Source of the DNA: Chthoniobacterales bacterium
Lineage (GTDB): Bacteria > Verrucomicrobiota > Verrucomicrobiia > Chthoniobacterales > JAATET01
Assembly (NCBI GenBank): GCA_015655545.1
Contig: JAATET010000049.1
Coordinates: 1 to 64,000 of the forward strand
DNA: 64,000 nucleotides
Direction of reading: 5' to 3'
Shown here: one piece after another, positions 3,006 to 8,564 of the stretch
Numbering within the stretch: position 1 is the stretch's first letter
Layout of the letters: each line of letters starts with the position of its first letter
Notes under the pieces: generated by a model
What the model saw: the letters and a program-made list of their open reading frames with translations, nothing else
The model's database searches: none
What the model was told of the DNA's origin: nothing
Position numbers and translations under genes: made by a program

Positions 3006-4538
3006 TCAAGGAACGGCCTTCGTCTCGGGGTCGCCGAGGTTGTCGAGTGCGGGGAGGCCGTAGGAGTCGCGGAGCTGGTCGGCGGTTTCGCTGACCTCTT
3101 TCGCGTCGAGGTAGAGCACGCCGGGGTCGGACTCGAGTTCGACTTTTTGAAAGCCGTCGATCGGATGCTTCGCGGCTTCGGCCACGTCCTCCAGGCAGCG
3201 GATCGTGCGGCCGTTGATTTTTTCGACGATGATCTCGGCCACGTCGTCGTAGCCGACGGTCGTATCGGCGGGGAGCACCTGGCTGAGGAAGACGATCTTG
3301 CCGCGGTCGGGGGGGAGCTCGTCCTGGAATTCATCGAGATAGGTGAGTCGGGCGGGGGCGTCGTTTTTCCAATCGCTGCCCCATTCGCGCAGGAAGGAGC
3401 GGGAGAGTTCCTGAAAAACGAGGCCGCCGAGGATATAGTAGCGGGGCGCGCGATCTAGGACCATCGGCTCGCTGATGACTTTCGAAAGATCGCGCGGCTC
3501 GAGCGGCAGTTTGAGATCGATGGTGTGGCCGTTTCGGAGAACGGTCATGGGAAGTTCGCCGCCGGGGAGATTCGCGGTGGAGATGAGGTGGCTGAAGGGA
3601 ATTTTCCCGTAGTCGGAGTTTTCGTAATTTCCATCCTCGTCGATCTCGTGGCCGCCCACGCTCATGACGACGTCGGCTTTTTTTAGCCCGGCTTTCTCGG
3701 CGGCGGCGGCGTGCGCCACGGAGACCACATAGACTCCGGCCTGTCCCTTCTTCATGCCGAGGTAGCGGCGGAATTGGGGATCGCGGGTGGGGGAAAAGGT
3801 GATGCCGGCGCGGGAGATGCCGCGGTAGGGCGGCTTCGCGATGCGCGCGAGAAAGTTGGCGATGACGACGTCGGGCACGATGTCGGCGGATTGCGAACGC
3901 GTCTCGTAGCGCATGAGGAGACCGGCCAGCCGGTCGCCGAGGAAGACGGGCATGGTGAAGCTGTTGTCGCGGTATTGCAGCGGCGCGCTGAGGCGGTAGG
4001 TGAGGAGCGCGATCCCGTCGGCCGGGTAATTGCCGACGCTCACGGTCGTGACGACGGCGGGGGTGAGGGCGACGGCGCCGGTATTTTCGAGCTGAAGAAC
4101 GCTGACTCGGGTGCCGACCTGCACGTCTTTGCCGAGCTGCACGGGCTTCGTGCCGTCGAGGAATTTCGGATCCTGAGGCTTGAGAATGGCGAGGTTCGAT
4201 TCGTAATCGACGCTCTCGACATCGGCGGCGACCTTGCCGGAGCTGACGGGCAGCTCGAGCTCGACGTAGGTGTGATTCGCGATCATCTCGGCGGTGACGA
4301 GCACGCGGCCGCCATCGATCACGACGCCAATGCCGCGGCGGTTGAAGGGCGGCTTCTTGGTCCAGGGGCGGCCGAAGTTGAACGACTGGTTCGTCGAGTT
4401 CACACGCACGATGGAATCCGCGGAGGGAAGGGGCGCGGGAGAATTCGCAACGGCGGCGCGAGTCTCGGCCGCCACGAGGAGGCACGGCGCAAGGACGGCA
4501 AGAATGGCGAAAAGATGGGAGCGGAGCAGCGCGATCAT
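3006..4538 (-). CDS. HtrA-like pseudoprotease with PDZ-like domains, catalytic triad lost
   Basis: A 510-aa exported protein (signal peptide about residues 1-28) with the trypsin-like plus PDZ arrangement of S1C proteases. The protease half keeps the fold (GIGVVIDGGRVLVTAEMIA, then SNLAILKPQD), but the usual TNAHVV histidine motif is replaced by TAEMIA and no GNSGGP serine motif exists; the matching stretch reads DNSFTMPVFLGDRLAGLL. A PDZ-like domain follows (GVYVVSVAHAAAAEKAGLKK, then ADVVMSVGGHEI). A C-terminal domain resembles that of its upstream neighbour. Its ATG overlaps the stop of the intact protease gene by four bases, so the two are translationally coupled. I infer a regulatory or substrate-binding partner. 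The last 20 residues recur in the wreck at 1279-1345. Confidence 0.82.
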   Translation of the reverse strand: MIALLRSHLFAILAVLAPCLLVAAETRAAVANSPAPLPSADSIVRVNSTNQSFNFGRPWTKKPPFNRRGIGVVIDGGRVLVTAEMIANHTYVELELPVSSGKVAADVESVDYESNLAILKPQDPKFLDGTKPVQLGKDVQVGTRVSVLQLENTGAVALTPAVVTTVSVGNYPADGIALLTYRLSAPLQYRDNSFTMPVFLGDRLAGLLMRYETRSQSADIVPDVVIANFLARIAKPPYRGISRAGITFSPTRDPQFRRYLGMKKGQAGVYVVSVAHAAAAEKAGLKKADVVMSVGGHEIDEDGNYENSDYGKIPFSHLISTANLPGGELPMTVLRNGHTIDLKLPLEPRDLSKVISEPMVLDRAPRYYILGGLVFQELSRSFLREWGSDWKNDAPARLTYLDEFQDELPPDRGKIVFLSQVLPADTTVGYDDVAEIIVEKINGRTIRCLEDVAEAAKHPIDGFQKVELESDPGVLYLDAKEVSETADQLRDSYGLPALDNLGDPETKAVP

Positions 4539-6001
4539 GGTTTCAAGTTCGATTCTTTGGCCACGCCGTAGCGGGAGCGGATGCGGTCGCGGGCGGCGGC
4601 GACGGCTTTCGCCTCGAGCACCAGCGGGCGGCTCGCGCCAAGGAACTCGATCACATAATATTCCGAGGGCTTCGCCAGGGCATCTGCGACGTCGTCGAGC
4701 GTCTTGATCTTCGCGCCGTTGATGGTGTCCACGATCGATTGGTAGAATTCGTCGGCGTAGGCGTTGACGGGGTCGGAGAGGATGTTGCTGAGGATGACGA
4801 TCTCGGGCCGCTCCTTGTAGAGATCGTTTTCGAGAAAGTGGTCGTAGTAATAGCGGGTGCGGGAATTTTTAAGCGTGGTGGCGTTGACAAAATCCTCGCT
4901 CAACGGCTGGAAGACCAGTCCGCCGAAGAGCACGTAGCGCGGCTTCACGTCGTAGGCATTCGCAAAAATGTTGAAGGGAAACGGCTCGGTGAGCGGGATC
5001 GTGAGCTTGAGCGGCCGGCCATCGCGGATGAGGCCGAGATCGACTTTGTCGCCCTTGAATTTGCGTTCCACGACCTCGGCCATTTGCACGTTGCTGTCGT
5101 CGAGCTCGACGGTGCCGTCGCTGGCGACGGCGTGGCCATCGATGGTGAGAATGACATCCCTCGGCTTGAGGATTCCATCGGCGGAGCCGCCTCCGTAGAT
5201 GTCGCTGACCATCACGCCCTGGCCGTCGTCGGGCAGTCCGAGCGCGCGGCGGGCGGCGGAGTTGTAAAGCGGGAAGGTGGTGATGGCGAGATCGACGTAG
5301 TGATCGTAGCGGCCGTCGGCGATGTCCGTGAGGAAGCGTTTGATGACGGTCGTGGGAATCATGTAGCCGGTGTTCTGCGCGACATCTCCGCTGTAGCCTT
5401 GAAAGGCGACGCCGATGACCTTGCCGTCTTGCACCACGGGGCCGCCGCTGTTGCCGGGATTGATGGCCGCGTCGATCTGGATGACGAGATGCGAGTCGGC
5501 GCCGGAGTGGCTGTATTCCTGAAACTCGACCCGCGAAACGATCCCTCGCGTGACGGAGGCGCGGTCGCCGCCGATCGGGTAGCCATAGACCATGACGTTG
5601 GACTCGAGCGCGGGAATGCCGTTGAAGTCGAGCGGAAGCATGCCTTTGAAAAAGTCGGGATTCGACGGCACGAGCACGGCGAGATCGCAATCGTGCGCGA
5701 TGTGCTGGATCCGTGCGCGATAGCGGTTCGCGTCGCCCTCGCGGGTGATCCAGATGACGCGCGCGTTGCTGACGACGTGGGCGTTCGTCAGGATGCGGTC
5801 GTCGGCGACGACAAATCCCGTGCCGATGCTTTCCTCCACCGAACCGGGATTCCACGGCGTGCTGTAGTCGGCTTCCTGCGAGACGGTCTGAATGCGGACG
5901 AGGCTGCGGCGAATGAGATCCGAAGTGGCGGCCTGCGTGTCCGAAAGGAACGCGGAGATAAGCGGCAGAAGAAAAATGGCGGCGCGGAAAAACTGCGTCA
6001 T
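4535..6001 (-). CDS. HtrA/Deg-like serine protease with PDZ-like domains
   Basis: A 488-aa exported S1C-type serine protease (signal peptide about residues 1-25). The catalytic triad is intact: His75 in LTNAHVV, Asp106 in HDCDLAVL and Ser185 in NPGNSGGP. A PDZ-like segment follows the protease domain (DGQGVMVSDIYGGGSADGIL, then KPRDVILTIDGHAV), and a C-terminal part shares its layout with the dead paralogue encoded directly downstream. Proteins of this family degrade or remodel misfolded envelope proteins. It lies 48 nt after an M23 peptidase gene, so the context is envelope maintenance. It is longer than a one-PDZ DegS and has a C-terminal domain that I do not recognise. Confidence 0.9.
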   Translation of the reverse strand: MTQFFRAAIFLLPLISAFLSDTQAATSDLIRRSLVRIQTVSQEADYSTPWNPGSVEESIGTGFVVADDRILTNAHVVSNARVIWITREGDANRYRARIQHIAHDCDLAVLVPSNPDFFKGMLPLDFNGIPALESNVMVYGYPIGGDRASVTRGIVSRVEFQEYSHSGADSHLVIQIDAAINPGNSGGPVVQDGKVIGVAFQGYSGDVAQNTGYMIPTTVIKRFLTDIADGRYDHYVDLAITTFPLYNSAARRALGLPDDGQGVMVSDIYGGGSADGILKPRDVILTIDGHAVASDGTVELDDSNVQMAEVVERKFKGDKVDLGLIRDGRPLKLTIPLTEPFPFNIFANAYDVKPRYVLFGGLVFQPLSEDFVNATTLKNSRTRYYYDHFLENDLYKERPEIVILSNILSDPVNAYADEFYQSIVDTINGAKIKTLDDVADALAKPSEYYVIEFLGASRPLVLEAKAVAAARDRIRSRYGVAKESNLKP

Positions 6002-6049: not shown

Positions 6050-6862
6050 CTATTCCGAATTCAGATCGCCGAAACGATCCACGCGAAAGGTCGAGGATTT
6101 CAGCGGGCGGGCGGAGGACTTGGGAACGGTGATCGTCGTGGATGCCGGCAGGCTGCCCGTCGTGGACTTCGGATCGTTTCTCAGGGCCGCGCCGCCGCTG
6201 GTCGGCGCGCCGAACGTGCGGGTCTCGGTGAAGGTATTGATCGCGACGAGCGTGGTGCGCCCGCCGCCGGGGAGCTGGCGCCGGCCGTTGATGAAGTCGG
6301 TGGGCGAGTAATAATTCGTGAAGTCGTGCCGATAGCCGGTGCGCGAGACGCCCATCTGGATGTTCTTGTGAATTTCAAAATGGAGATGCGCCGGATAAAT
6401 CCCGTGCGCGGTGCCCATGGTGCCGATGAGCTGGCCGCGCAGGACCTGCTGGCCCTCGCGGACCTTGATGGCGTCGAGATGGCCGTAGAGCGAATCCACG
6501 GTCTTGAGCTCGCGCTCCTCGAAATAGATGTGCCGGATCACGACGACATTCCCCCAGCCGAGATGGACGTCGCGCGCGAAGACCACGAGGCCGTGGGCGG
6601 TCGAATAAATCGGATCGCCGAGGTCGGTGTCGCCGCCCTTGATGCCATTCCAATCCTCGCCGAGGTGGCCATTGGGGCGAAAGCCGCGGGCCTTGTAGTA
6701 GCCGTCGGCATCCGGCTTGCCGACGGGAAAGTCGAAGCCGTCCGCGACGCGGGTGCGGGCGACCTGTGGCTTGGGCGGCGGCGTCTGTTTCGGCGTTTCC
6801 GGCGCGGCGACCAAGGCCGACACGACGGCTCCGAGGACGCACCAGAACAAAAACCTACGCAT
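6050..6862 (-). CDS. M23 family metallopeptidase (LytM-like)
   Basis: Chosen start ATG at 6862 gives 270 aa with a signal peptide (MRRFLFWCVLGAVVSALVAA). An upstream in-frame extension lacks protein character. The zinc ligands of M23 peptidases are visible: His66 and Asp70 in NGHLGEDWN and His161 in HLHFEI, with His128 (GHLD) and His159 as catalytic histidines. The family cleaves peptide cross-bridges in peptidoglycan. The C-terminal 80 residues are Thr/Ser/Pro-rich and may be a linker or a wall-binding tail. It is encoded between a small conserved protein and the protease pair, all on the minus strand with short gaps. Confidence 0.9.
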   Translation of the reverse strand: MRRFLFWCVLGAVVSALVAAPETPKQTPPPKPQVARTRVADGFDFPVGKPDADGYYKARGFRPNGHLGEDWNGIKGGDTDLGDPIYSTAHGLVVFARDVHLGWGNVVVIRHIYFEERELKTVDSLYGHLDAIKVREGQQVLRGQLIGTMGTAHGIYPAHLHFEIHKNIQMGVSRTGYRHDFTNYYSPTDFINGRRQLPGGGRTTLVAINTFTETRTFGAPTSGGAALRNDPKSTTGSLPASTTITVPKSSARPLKSSTFRVDRFGDLNSE

Positions 6863-6924
6863 AAGAGCCCGCCAGAATAAGCGTGTGTGAAAGTGGGCGC
6901 AAGTTTTTGGCCCGCGTCGTTTGC

Positions 6925-7323
6925 TCAGTTCTGCTGCCCGACTTGAATGACCGGCATCGGAAAGCGCAGCTGCAACTCGTCGTCGAGGTGGATCTCGATG
7001 TGATGCACGCCGTAGCGCTCGAACTTCACCCCGCCGAAGACATGGACGTTCGTCGCGTTGCCTTCGAATTCGTTGAGCGTGAACTCCACGCGCGACTCGG
7101 CGAGAATCTGCTCGTCCTCGGACGAAATAATCAGCGAGCGCTGTGTGAAGGTGCCTTCTCCGCCGCACCAGCGCGTCCACAGGCAGAGCTTGAAAAATGC
7201 GACCGGCAGCATGGGGGCGGGGATCACGGTGATCACGCCGACGAGCGTCTGCTGGCCGCTCATTTCGGCGCGGACGTCCTCGCAGAGCAGGCTGGCTTGA
7301 AGGTCCGGAAGGATGTCACTCAT
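6925..7323 (-). CDS. conserved hypothetical protein, DUF6941-like
   Basis: A 132-aa soluble protein starting MSDILPDLQASLLCEDVRAE. The pattern LCEDVR, then TLVGVITVI and a C-terminal GVHHIEIHLDDELQL, resembles small bacterial proteins grouped as DUF6941, whose role is unknown; I am only moderately sure of that match. There is no signal peptide or membrane segment. The ATG at 7323 overlaps the stop of uppP by four bases, so it is probably translated from the uppP message. A longer reading from further upstream lies inside uppP and was rejected. Confidence 0.75.
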   Translation of the reverse strand: MSDILPDLQASLLCEDVRAEMSGQQTLVGVITVIPAPMLPVAFFKLCLWTRWCGGEGTFTQRSLIISSEDEQILAESRVEFTLNEFEGNATNVHVFGGVKFERYGVHHIEIHLDDELQLRFPMPVIQVGQQN

Positions 7324-8108
7324 CGGTGGAGAAAGAACAGGCCGAGCAGCAGCAGGCCGAAGGCGATGCGGTAGATGCCGAAGCTCACGAACGAGTGCGA
7401 CTGCACGTAGCGCAGCAGCCACTTCACGGCGATGAAGGATACGGCGGCGGCGACGACGAAGCCGAGCGCGATAAGGCTCCAGGGCTCGTGGACGCCTTCT
7501 TTCAAGCCGCTATGAATTTCCAGCGCGCCGGCGGCGAGCATGGTGGGAATGCCGACGAGAAAGGAAAACTCCGTCGCGGCGATGCGGCCCGTGCCGAGCG
7601 CCATGGCGAACATGATCGTCGAGCCGGAGCGCGACGCGCCGGGAAACGCCGCGGCCACGAGCTGGCCGAGAGCGACCGCGAGCACCACGGGCCACGAGAT
7701 GCCGTCGGCCGATTCGCGTCCTTTGATCGCGCCTTCGACGATGATGAAAACGATGCCGCCGACGATCAGCGCGAGGGCGACCGGCACTAATTCCTCGGGC
7801 AGCTTGAAGCCGAGCTTTTTCATCACGAAGCCACCGATGCAGGTGATGAAAAACGCGACGAAAACCTTGAGATCCAGCAGGCGGCTCGCGGGCTCATGGA
7901 TCCGCAGCATCATGGCGATGCGCTTGTGAAAAAGCGGCAGCACGGCAAGAACCGCGCCGACTTGAATGACGACGTTGAAGAGGTCGGACTTCTGCCCGCC
8001 CAGCCAATGCTCGGCGACCAGCAGGTGCCCCGTGGAGGAAACGGGAATGAACTCCGTGACGCCTTCGACGATGCCGAGGATGACGACGATCAGCCAGGCA
8101 GGCAGCAT
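7320..8108 (-). CDS. uppP: undecaprenyl-diphosphatase UppP (BacA)
   Basis: A 262-aa polytopic membrane protein that dephosphorylates undecaprenyl pyrophosphate, recycling the lipid carrier for peptidoglycan and other surface polymers and giving bacitracin tolerance. Both family signatures are present: EGVTEFIPVSSTGHL at residues 15-29 with the catalytic Glu, and GASRSGSTI in the middle. The length fits the family. It lies 33 nt after glnB and overlaps the next gene by four bases, which makes it part of the minus-strand envelope run. The C-terminus ends in a hydrophobic helix (GLLLLGLFFLHR). Confidence 0.97.
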   Translation of the reverse strand: MLPAWLIVVILGIVEGVTEFIPVSSTGHLLVAEHWLGGQKSDLFNVVIQVGAVLAVLPLFHKRIAMMLRIHEPASRLLDLKVFVAFFITCIGGFVMKKLGFKLPEELVPVALALIVGGIVFIIVEGAIKGRESADGISWPVVLAVALGQLVAAAFPGASRSGSTIMFAMALGTGRIAATEFSFLVGIPTMLAAGALEIHSGLKEGVHEPWSLIALGFVVAAAVSFIAVKWLLRYVQSHSFVSFGIYRIAFGLLLLGLFFLHR

Positions 8109-8141
8109 CGACTGGAATGGAACAGCTCGGGAGGGCCCGGG

Positions 8142-8564
<423 letters not shown>

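What the first reader, a model, noticed from the sequence alone, without database searches (positions are those of the whole stretch)
3006..6001. HtrA-like protease and pseudoprotease encoded as a coupled pair
The upstream gene has His75-Asp106-Ser185 intact; the downstream one keeps the PDZ-like part and shares the C-terminal domain but has lost His and Ser motifs. Their four-base overlap implies equal expression and perhaps a hetero-oligomer in which the dead subunit binds substrates or ligands. An M23 peptidase lies just upstream.
Basis: partly seen in the sequence, partly recalled or inferred. Interest (0 to 1): 0.55.

Follow-up and report, generated by a model that had tools for sequence, protein, structure and literature searches.

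The report
Ancient pair: protease and dead twin
Two neighbouring genes make a cell-envelope protein-cutting enzyme and a dead look-alike of it, and many bacteria of one phylum, and also Leptospira, keep the two together, which suggests that the dead copy is a working partner rather than a relic.

Summary
The upstream gene (A, 4535-6001, minus strand) is an HtrA-type protease with His75-Asp106-Ser185. The downstream gene (B, 3006-4538) overlaps it by ATGA. B is a full-length paralogue (degenerate trypsin domain, PDZ, PDZ_3) without an active site. Both resemble plant Deg2/Deg9. Relatives support the pair: in 99 pairs fetched from the phylum A always keeps the triad and stands first, and 0 of 105 B proteins have a complete triad. 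Trees, including one on the PDZ region alone, place the sampled A and B in separate groups, so duplication and inactivation most likely happened once. An orthologous pair occurs in Leptospira interrogans (matching LIC20143/LIC20144; LIC20144 was described in print as PDZ-only). In four genomes of two families where the two are unlinked, both remain. B is under purifying selection and has conserved residues of its own. Most likely B is an obligate non-catalytic partner of A, perhaps a subunit of a mixed oligomer. Physical association is inferred, not shown. Precedents are MamE/MamO and plant Deg7. The neighbouring M23 gene is conserved only in the genus. Verdict: real and under-recognised; a new variant of a known kind.

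The parts
4535..6001 (-). A: active HtrA/Deg-type serine protease, 488 aa, with an N-terminal hydrophobic leader (by eye)
   Evidence: ORF; Pfam; best solved relatives Deg2 4fln, Deg9 5il9
5408..5824 (-). Trypsin_2 domain of A (residues 60-198); triad codons His75 5777-5779, Asp106 5684-5686, Ser185 5447-5449
4991..5221 (-). PDZ domain of A (residues 261-337)
   Evidence: PF13180
4553..4960 (-). PDZ_3 domain of A (residues 348-483)
   Evidence: PF17815
3006..4538 (-). B: pseudoprotease paralogue of A, 510 aa, with an N-terminal hydrophobic leader (by eye)
3831..4343 (-). degenerate trypsin-like domain of B (about residues 66-236); His to Glu, Asp to Asn115, GNSGGP to DNSFTMP
   Evidence: alignment; low-confidence model whose best fold matches are Deg9/Deg2
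3615..3806 (-). PDZ domain of B (residues 245-308)
   Evidence: PF13180
3051..3458 (-). PDZ_3 domain of B (residues 361-496)
   Evidence: PF17815
4535..4538 (-). ATGA overlap: stop of A, start of B (suggests translational coupling)
   Evidence: read directly
6050..6880 (-). M23 peptidase just upstream; neighbour found in the genus only, probably not part of the pair
   Evidence: PF01551

Best explanation
A and B are an ancient, mostly co-inherited two-gene unit of the cell envelope. A is an ATP-independent Deg2/Deg9-type HtrA protease. B is its catalytically dead duplicate, kept as an obligate non-catalytic partner. Proposed mechanism: the two are made from one message with coupled translation, are exported, and assemble through their trypsin-fold and PDZ modules into mixed oligomers. 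There B supplies extra PDZ/PDZ_3 binding surfaces and inert positions that recruit substrates and set when A's active sites open. Shown here: the separate A and B lineages with loss of the active site in B, co-inheritance, gene order, retention of both genes when unlinked, and selection on B. Inferred: proteolytic activity of A, export, physical mixing, and the gating or recruiting role.
For: 99 of 99 A proteins have the triad and 0 of 105 B proteins do; 78 of 105 B have lost all three residues. In all 99 pairs both genes are on one strand with A first, and 92 of 99 have an in-frame B start codon within 60 nt of A's stop. The 48 A and 48 B sampled form separate groups in the full-length tree (SH-aLRT 84 and 99) and in a tree without the protease domain (82 and 98). 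A and B distances across 48 loci correlate at r = 0.93. Unlinked pairs keep both genes: genus g63 in 3 genomes, with A and B about 1.56 Mb apart in the one-contig genome G305, and G006. B has dN/dS of 0.08-0.22 in the six informative close pairs and conserved residues of its own (Asp111 99%, Asn115 86%, Gln149 84%, Gly311 97%). The degenerate trypsin region is at least 92% covered in all 105 B, and the Trp of a Pro-Trp motif is present in all 105; the motif is shared with A and single-copy relatives. Leptospira A and B fall inside the A and B groups. PMC7709667 (passages) reports both LIC20143 and LIC20144 as detected among secreted proteins in an earlier study. Precedents: Deg7, whose degenerate protease domain mediates trimerisation (PMC4754418 passage), and MamO, needed non-catalytically for MamE-dependent proteolysis (PMC4794232 passages).
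Against: No direct evidence of physical contact; correlated A and B distances also follow from shared descent. In the MamE/MamO precedent the paper reports no detected physical interaction. In one genome (G012, 93% complete) A has no B detected. B evolves about 1.5 times as fast as A, and its trypsin region is the least conserved part of it (entropy 2.31), as expected if B need not copy A's interfaces closely. By the cut-offs used only five A positions distinguish A from single-copy relatives, so no clear B-binding surface appears in A. A few B keep one (24 of 105) or two (3 of 105) triad residues.
Confidence: 0.52

Rival explanations
1. B works beside A but apart from it: a secreted PDZ/PDZ_3 chaperone or adaptor that forms its own oligomers and hands clients to A or to other envelope factors. 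Shared translation only keeps the two in step.
For: Unlinked pairs keep both genes, which needs only a shared pathway. B's PDZ and PDZ_3 regions vary about as much as A's (mean entropies 2.19 and 2.24 against 1.92 and 2.16) while its trypsin region is relaxed (2.31 against 1.24).
Against: The constant gene order and mostly small gaps fit stoichiometric partners better. The degenerate region is kept nearly entire in all 105 B compared.
Confidence: 0.25
2. B is mainly a brake: it occupies positions in the A oligomer or presents a pseudo-substrate so that A is silent until stress.
For: Dead subunits act so in some other protease systems (recalled). The lost active-site region of B has its own conserved Asp111/Asn115.
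Against: A dispensable brake would let some lineages keep A alone. Beside 99 pairs and 6 further A-group loci with B next door, the A-only genomes seen were G012 and, at a contig end, G194.
Confidence: 0.12
3. B was repurposed for another ligand, such as a metal, as in MamO.
For: MamO is a metal-binding HtrA pseudoprotease (PMC4794232).
Against: No His or Cys is conserved in B above 61%; no TauE-like domain was found in B.
Confidence: 0.06
4. B is a decaying gene.
For: It lost its active site and evolves faster than A.
Against: The 105 B frames compared are open and cover at least 95% of the span from Pro-Trp to the end of PDZ_3; dN/dS is well below 1; B-specific residues are conserved and the B group spans the phylum sample.
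Confidence: 0.01

Closest known systems
Plant Deg2 and Deg9 (4fln, 5il9): trypsin-PDZ-PDZ_3 HtrA proteases
   Same: Near full-length similarity of both A and B and the same domain order; Foldseek best matches of the B model
   Different: The plant proteins have a triad and are encoded as single genes (the latter recalled); here an active and a dead copy are encoded together
Leptospira LIC20143/LIC20144 (and LIC11112/LIC11111)
   Same: The L. interrogans A (His93-Asp124-Ser203, the positions reported for LIC20143) and the B 14 nt behind it are orthologues of this pair by tree. PMC7709667 (passages) calls both LIC pairs operons, reports an ATGA overlap in LIC11112/LIC11111, proposes a heterodimer for that one, and raises co-expression as a possible regulatory mechanism for LIC20143/LIC20144
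   Different: That paper described LIC20144 as having only a PDZ domain; here its counterpart aligns to B over 465 residues, degenerate trypsin region included. The passages read do not mention Verrucomicrobiota. LIC11112/LIC11111 was not fetched
MamE/MamO of magnetotactic bacteria
   Same: Active HtrA plus HtrA-derived pseudoprotease in one genomic island; MamO needed non-catalytically for MamE-dependent proteolysis (PMC4794232 passages)
   Different: Described there as arising separately in magnetotactic bacteria; MamO has a TauE-like domain; A scores 82.5 bits against the MamE cut-off of 800
Plant Deg7 (two-protease-domain HtrA)
   Same: One active and one degenerate protease domain with several PDZ domains; the degenerate domain mediates trimerisation (PMC4754418 passage; also PMC3473262 passages)
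   Different: One fused chain in plants; here two genes
DegP/DegQ/HtrA (TIGR02037)
   Same: Protease and first PDZ of A match (126.4 bits)
   Different: Far below the 416.2-bit cut-off; PDZ_3 in place of a usual second PDZ

Membership tests
Deg2/Deg9-type HtrA protease (A) | Trypsin-like domain with His-Asp-Ser and GNSGGP | tested here: met
Deg2/Deg9-type HtrA protease (A) | PDZ followed by PDZ_3 and near full-length match to solved Deg2/Deg9 | tested here: met
Deg2/Deg9-type HtrA protease (A) | Oligomeric state and proteolytic activity | not testable with these tools
   no experiment or complex modelling available
Deg2/Deg9-type HtrA protease (B) | Catalytic triad | tested here: not met
   0 of 105 B have all three residues
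HtrA pseudoprotease (B) | Homology to an active HtrA through the protease domain | tested here: met
HtrA pseudoprotease (B) | Inactive state inherited and under selection | tested here: met
HtrA pseudoprotease (B) | No proteolytic activity | not testable with these tools
   sequence prediction only
Do family (TIGR02037) | Score over curated cut-off | tested here: not met
   126.4 bits (A) and 37.5 bits (B) against 416.2
MamE/MamO | Score over NCBIfam cut-offs; TauE-like domain of MamO | tested here: not met
Hetero-oligomeric HtrA | A and B in one complex | not testable with these tools
   inferred from genomic evidence only

The most novel reading that the evidence does not exclude
A phylum-wide, obligately two-subunit HtrA: each assembly contains catalytic A and dead B subunits, much as ClpP/ClpR rings do (recalled comparison), fixed by one ancient duplication and carried into or shared with Leptospira. 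The A/B branch of PDZ_3 proteins would then be a class of heteromeric HtrAs whose dead subunit has been annotated as a mere PDZ protein.
Probability: 0.42. Interest if true: 0.75.

Novelty: new variant of a known kind. Interest (0 to 1): 0.58.

Why it matters
HtrA proteases are usually described as homo-oligomers (recalled). A dead paralogue kept beside the active one across a sample of a whole phylum, and retained where the two are unlinked, suggests a conserved two-component HtrA. It makes the question of what an inactive HtrA subunit contributes directly testable, in recombinant proteins and in Leptospira biflexa. It would also correct an annotation: the Leptospira 'PDZ-only' protein LIC20144 looks like a full-length pseudoprotease.

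Tried and rejected
Decaying-gene reading: rejected. Metal-binding (MamO-like) reading: no strongly conserved His/Cys in B. Conserved operon partners: neighbour clustering over 99 pairs gave no widely shared sense neighbour. The largest cluster (56 loci) looks like antisense frames over A/B, judged from its positions, and the next two span 12 and 11 loci; M23 was found only in the genus. Structure models from four sequences are weak (B mean pLDDT 55.5; A 61.8); only the overall fold match of B is used, and no complex could be modelled. The genome-contig scan gave one locus, L033, which I take to be the same contig as that of G002 from its equal length (36,947 bases) and identical scores; it was left out of the counts. 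Covariation between A and B was not run, because shared ancestry would confound it with about 100 pairs. The direction of the duplication (B lost in single-copy lineages, or B a fast-evolving daughter of A) is not settled, since the trees have no sure root. Phyla other than the window's were not surveyed, apart from one tblastn of plasmid records.

Rows dropped: L033 (duplicate of L064); the second weak HtrA hit in L165; L189-L195 (single-copy genes of family f17, triad present), L196 and L197 (weak matches) from the residue tally; L182 (100 bases, of no use). The main trees used 48 of 99 pairs plus 14 singles and 2 plant sequences.

Full report
WHAT IS THERE. On the minus strand the window encodes A (4535-6001, 488 aa) and B (3006-4538, 510 aa), sharing ATGA. 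A has Trypsin_2, PDZ_2 and PDZ_3 above the Pfam cut-offs. B has PDZ_2 and PDZ_3 above the cut-offs and a trypsin trace below it. Both have an N-terminal hydrophobic leader by eye, so export is inferred. By sequence both match plant Deg2 and Deg9 over nearly their whole length: A to 4fln at 1.7e-77, B to 5il9 at 5.6e-45. B therefore has a complete but degenerate protease domain. In A the triad is His75-Asp106-Ser185. In B these are Glu, Asn and a rebuilt loop DNSFTMP.

RELATIVES. A search of the own genome (84% complete) found just these two. In the order, 50 of 57 genomes, the own one included, have PDZ_3 matches, and 49 of those 50 have at least two; the other 7 have none. In a sample of 387 genomes of the phylum, 151 match B; by hand count of that table 96 have two or more matches and 55 have one. 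I fetched loci from part of these genomes and found 99 loci, the window included, with A and B together. All 99 A have H, D, S and GNSGG. Of 105 B (those 99, five found alone on a locus, and Leptospira) 78 keep none of the three residues, 24 keep one, 3 keep two, none keeps all, and none has GNSGG. All 105 are nearly entire: at least 92% of the trypsin region and 95% of the span from Pro-Trp to the end of PDZ_3 is filled. A is on the same strand and first in all 99. The one case that one search counts as reversed is L065, whose B open frame begins further upstream but whose B start codon lies at -4. In 92 of 99 an in-frame start lies within 60 nt of A's stop, 36 of 99 have one at exactly -4, and in seven the nearest lies 61-2504 nt away.

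ONE ORIGIN. In a tree of 112 proteins the 48 B are one side of a branch (SH-aLRT 99) and the 48 A another (84). With the protease domain removed the result is the same (98 and 82), so shared decay of the active site does not cause it. These are quick trees without bootstrap. Distances among A and among B correlate (r = 0.93, 0 of 1000 permutations as high; mean B distance 1.49 times that of A), and 23 of 45 splits are shared. The 43 single-copy sequences tallied all have the triad. In a faster tree with more of them, the smallest side holding all A and no B has 48 A and 7 more (support 99); the single-copy proteins, Deg2 and Deg9 lie outside it. Of those 7, six (L198-L203) have a B or a piece of one next door, and L183 is at a contig end. 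The root is not known, so it is open whether B was lost in the single-copy lineages.

EXCEPTIONS, TOLD IN FULL. Where A and B are apart, both are kept. In genus g63 they lie on separate contigs (G265, G294) or, in the one-contig genome G305, about 1.56 Mb apart. In G006 they are on different contigs, with no partner within some 4 kb on the expected side. In G051 a cysteinyl-tRNA-synthetase-like gene (by eye) lies between them, about 2.5 kb. G038 and G044 have them on different contigs, close to contig ends. One partner only: G194 (A at a contig start), G350 (B 76 bases from a contig end, A not found), G045 (by coordinates one pair-type PDZ_3 match near a contig start, not fetched), and G012 (A followed by a histidine-kinase-like gene by eye, no B found, 93% complete).

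A SECOND PHYLUM. A tblastn of B against plasmid-type records found three records. Two are Leptospira interrogans; the one I opened has an 'S1C family serine protease' followed 14 nt later by a 'PDZ domain-containing protein'. The first has His93-Asp124-Ser203, the positions reported for LIC20143 in PMC7709667 (passages). Leptospira A falls in a set with 42 A (98) and B in a set with all 48 B (100), though B has a long branch. The same paper describes a second operon, LIC11112/LIC11111, with an ATGA overlap and proposes a heterodimer there. It says LIC20144 has only a PDZ domain and predicts outer-membrane location for most of these proteins; here the LIC20144 counterpart aligns to the window's B over 465 residues at 30% identity. 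Sulfurovum has a single gene with the triad next to the single-copy group.

SELECTION AND RESIDUES. dN/dS for B is 0.075-0.224 in six close pairs and for A 0.027-0.202; in a seventh pair B has no non-synonymous change and too few synonymous ones to inform; synonymous sites approach saturation in some pairs. A's protease region is its most conserved part (entropy 1.24); B's is relaxed (2.31), while PDZ and PDZ_3 are similar in both. B has fixed features of its own: Asp111, Asn115 in place of the catalytic Asp, Gln149, Gly311, Asp253. Pro-Trp near the N-terminus is shared by A, B and single-copy relatives; that such N-terminal segments pack at HtrA oligomer interfaces is recalled, not tested.

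NEIGHBOURS. Besides what look like antisense frames no widely shared neighbour was found; the next clusters span 12 and 11 of 99 loci. M23 is upstream in the genus only. In 9 fetched loci of another lineage a common downstream protein occurs. The pair thus looks like a self-contained unit.

MECHANISM. Best reading: obligate partners, probably mixed HtrA oligomers with B as a non-catalytic, substrate-binding or gating subunit. Precedents seen in passages are MamE/MamO, where no physical interaction was detected, and Deg7. Contact itself is inferred. Structure models were weak, but the best fold matches of the B model are Deg9 and Deg2.

NOVELTY. Ten paper searches, among them HtrA with pseudoprotease, Verrucomicrobi with HtrA and catalytic triad (one paper, PMC8534766, seen as a listing), Akkermansia with Deg protease (none), PF17815 and the LIC locus numbers, listed no title or abstract start describing this pair in Verrucomicrobiota; the Leptospira paper describes related operons. 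The library lacks most subscription papers. I therefore call it a new variant of a known kind.

Noticed in passing
L177 (G006:C69); by coordinates also G015, G022, G045, G051: Family f4 of the order carries a further PDZ_3 protein (profile positions about 7-145), distinct from A and B; the L177 copy has an intact triad.
   Followed up: partly
L128, L129, L133, L135-L137, L139, L178, L179, downstream of B: In one lineage of the phylum a common protein of 315-511 aa, TPR-like by eye, follows the pair.
   Followed up: partly
window 6925-8552: DUF6941 protein, BacA-type protein (Pfam) and a P-II-like protein (by eye) lie upstream of M23; the block recurs in part in the genus.
   Followed up: no
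Leptospira LIC11112/LIC11111 (PMC7709667): Its reported triad spacing (His77, Asp108, Ser188) is close to that of A here, so Leptospira may hold two such pairs.
   Followed up: no
L189-L195, family f17 of the same class: Single Deg-type genes with the triad that score lower than A and most other singles; no B seen in the fetched loci.
   Followed up: partly
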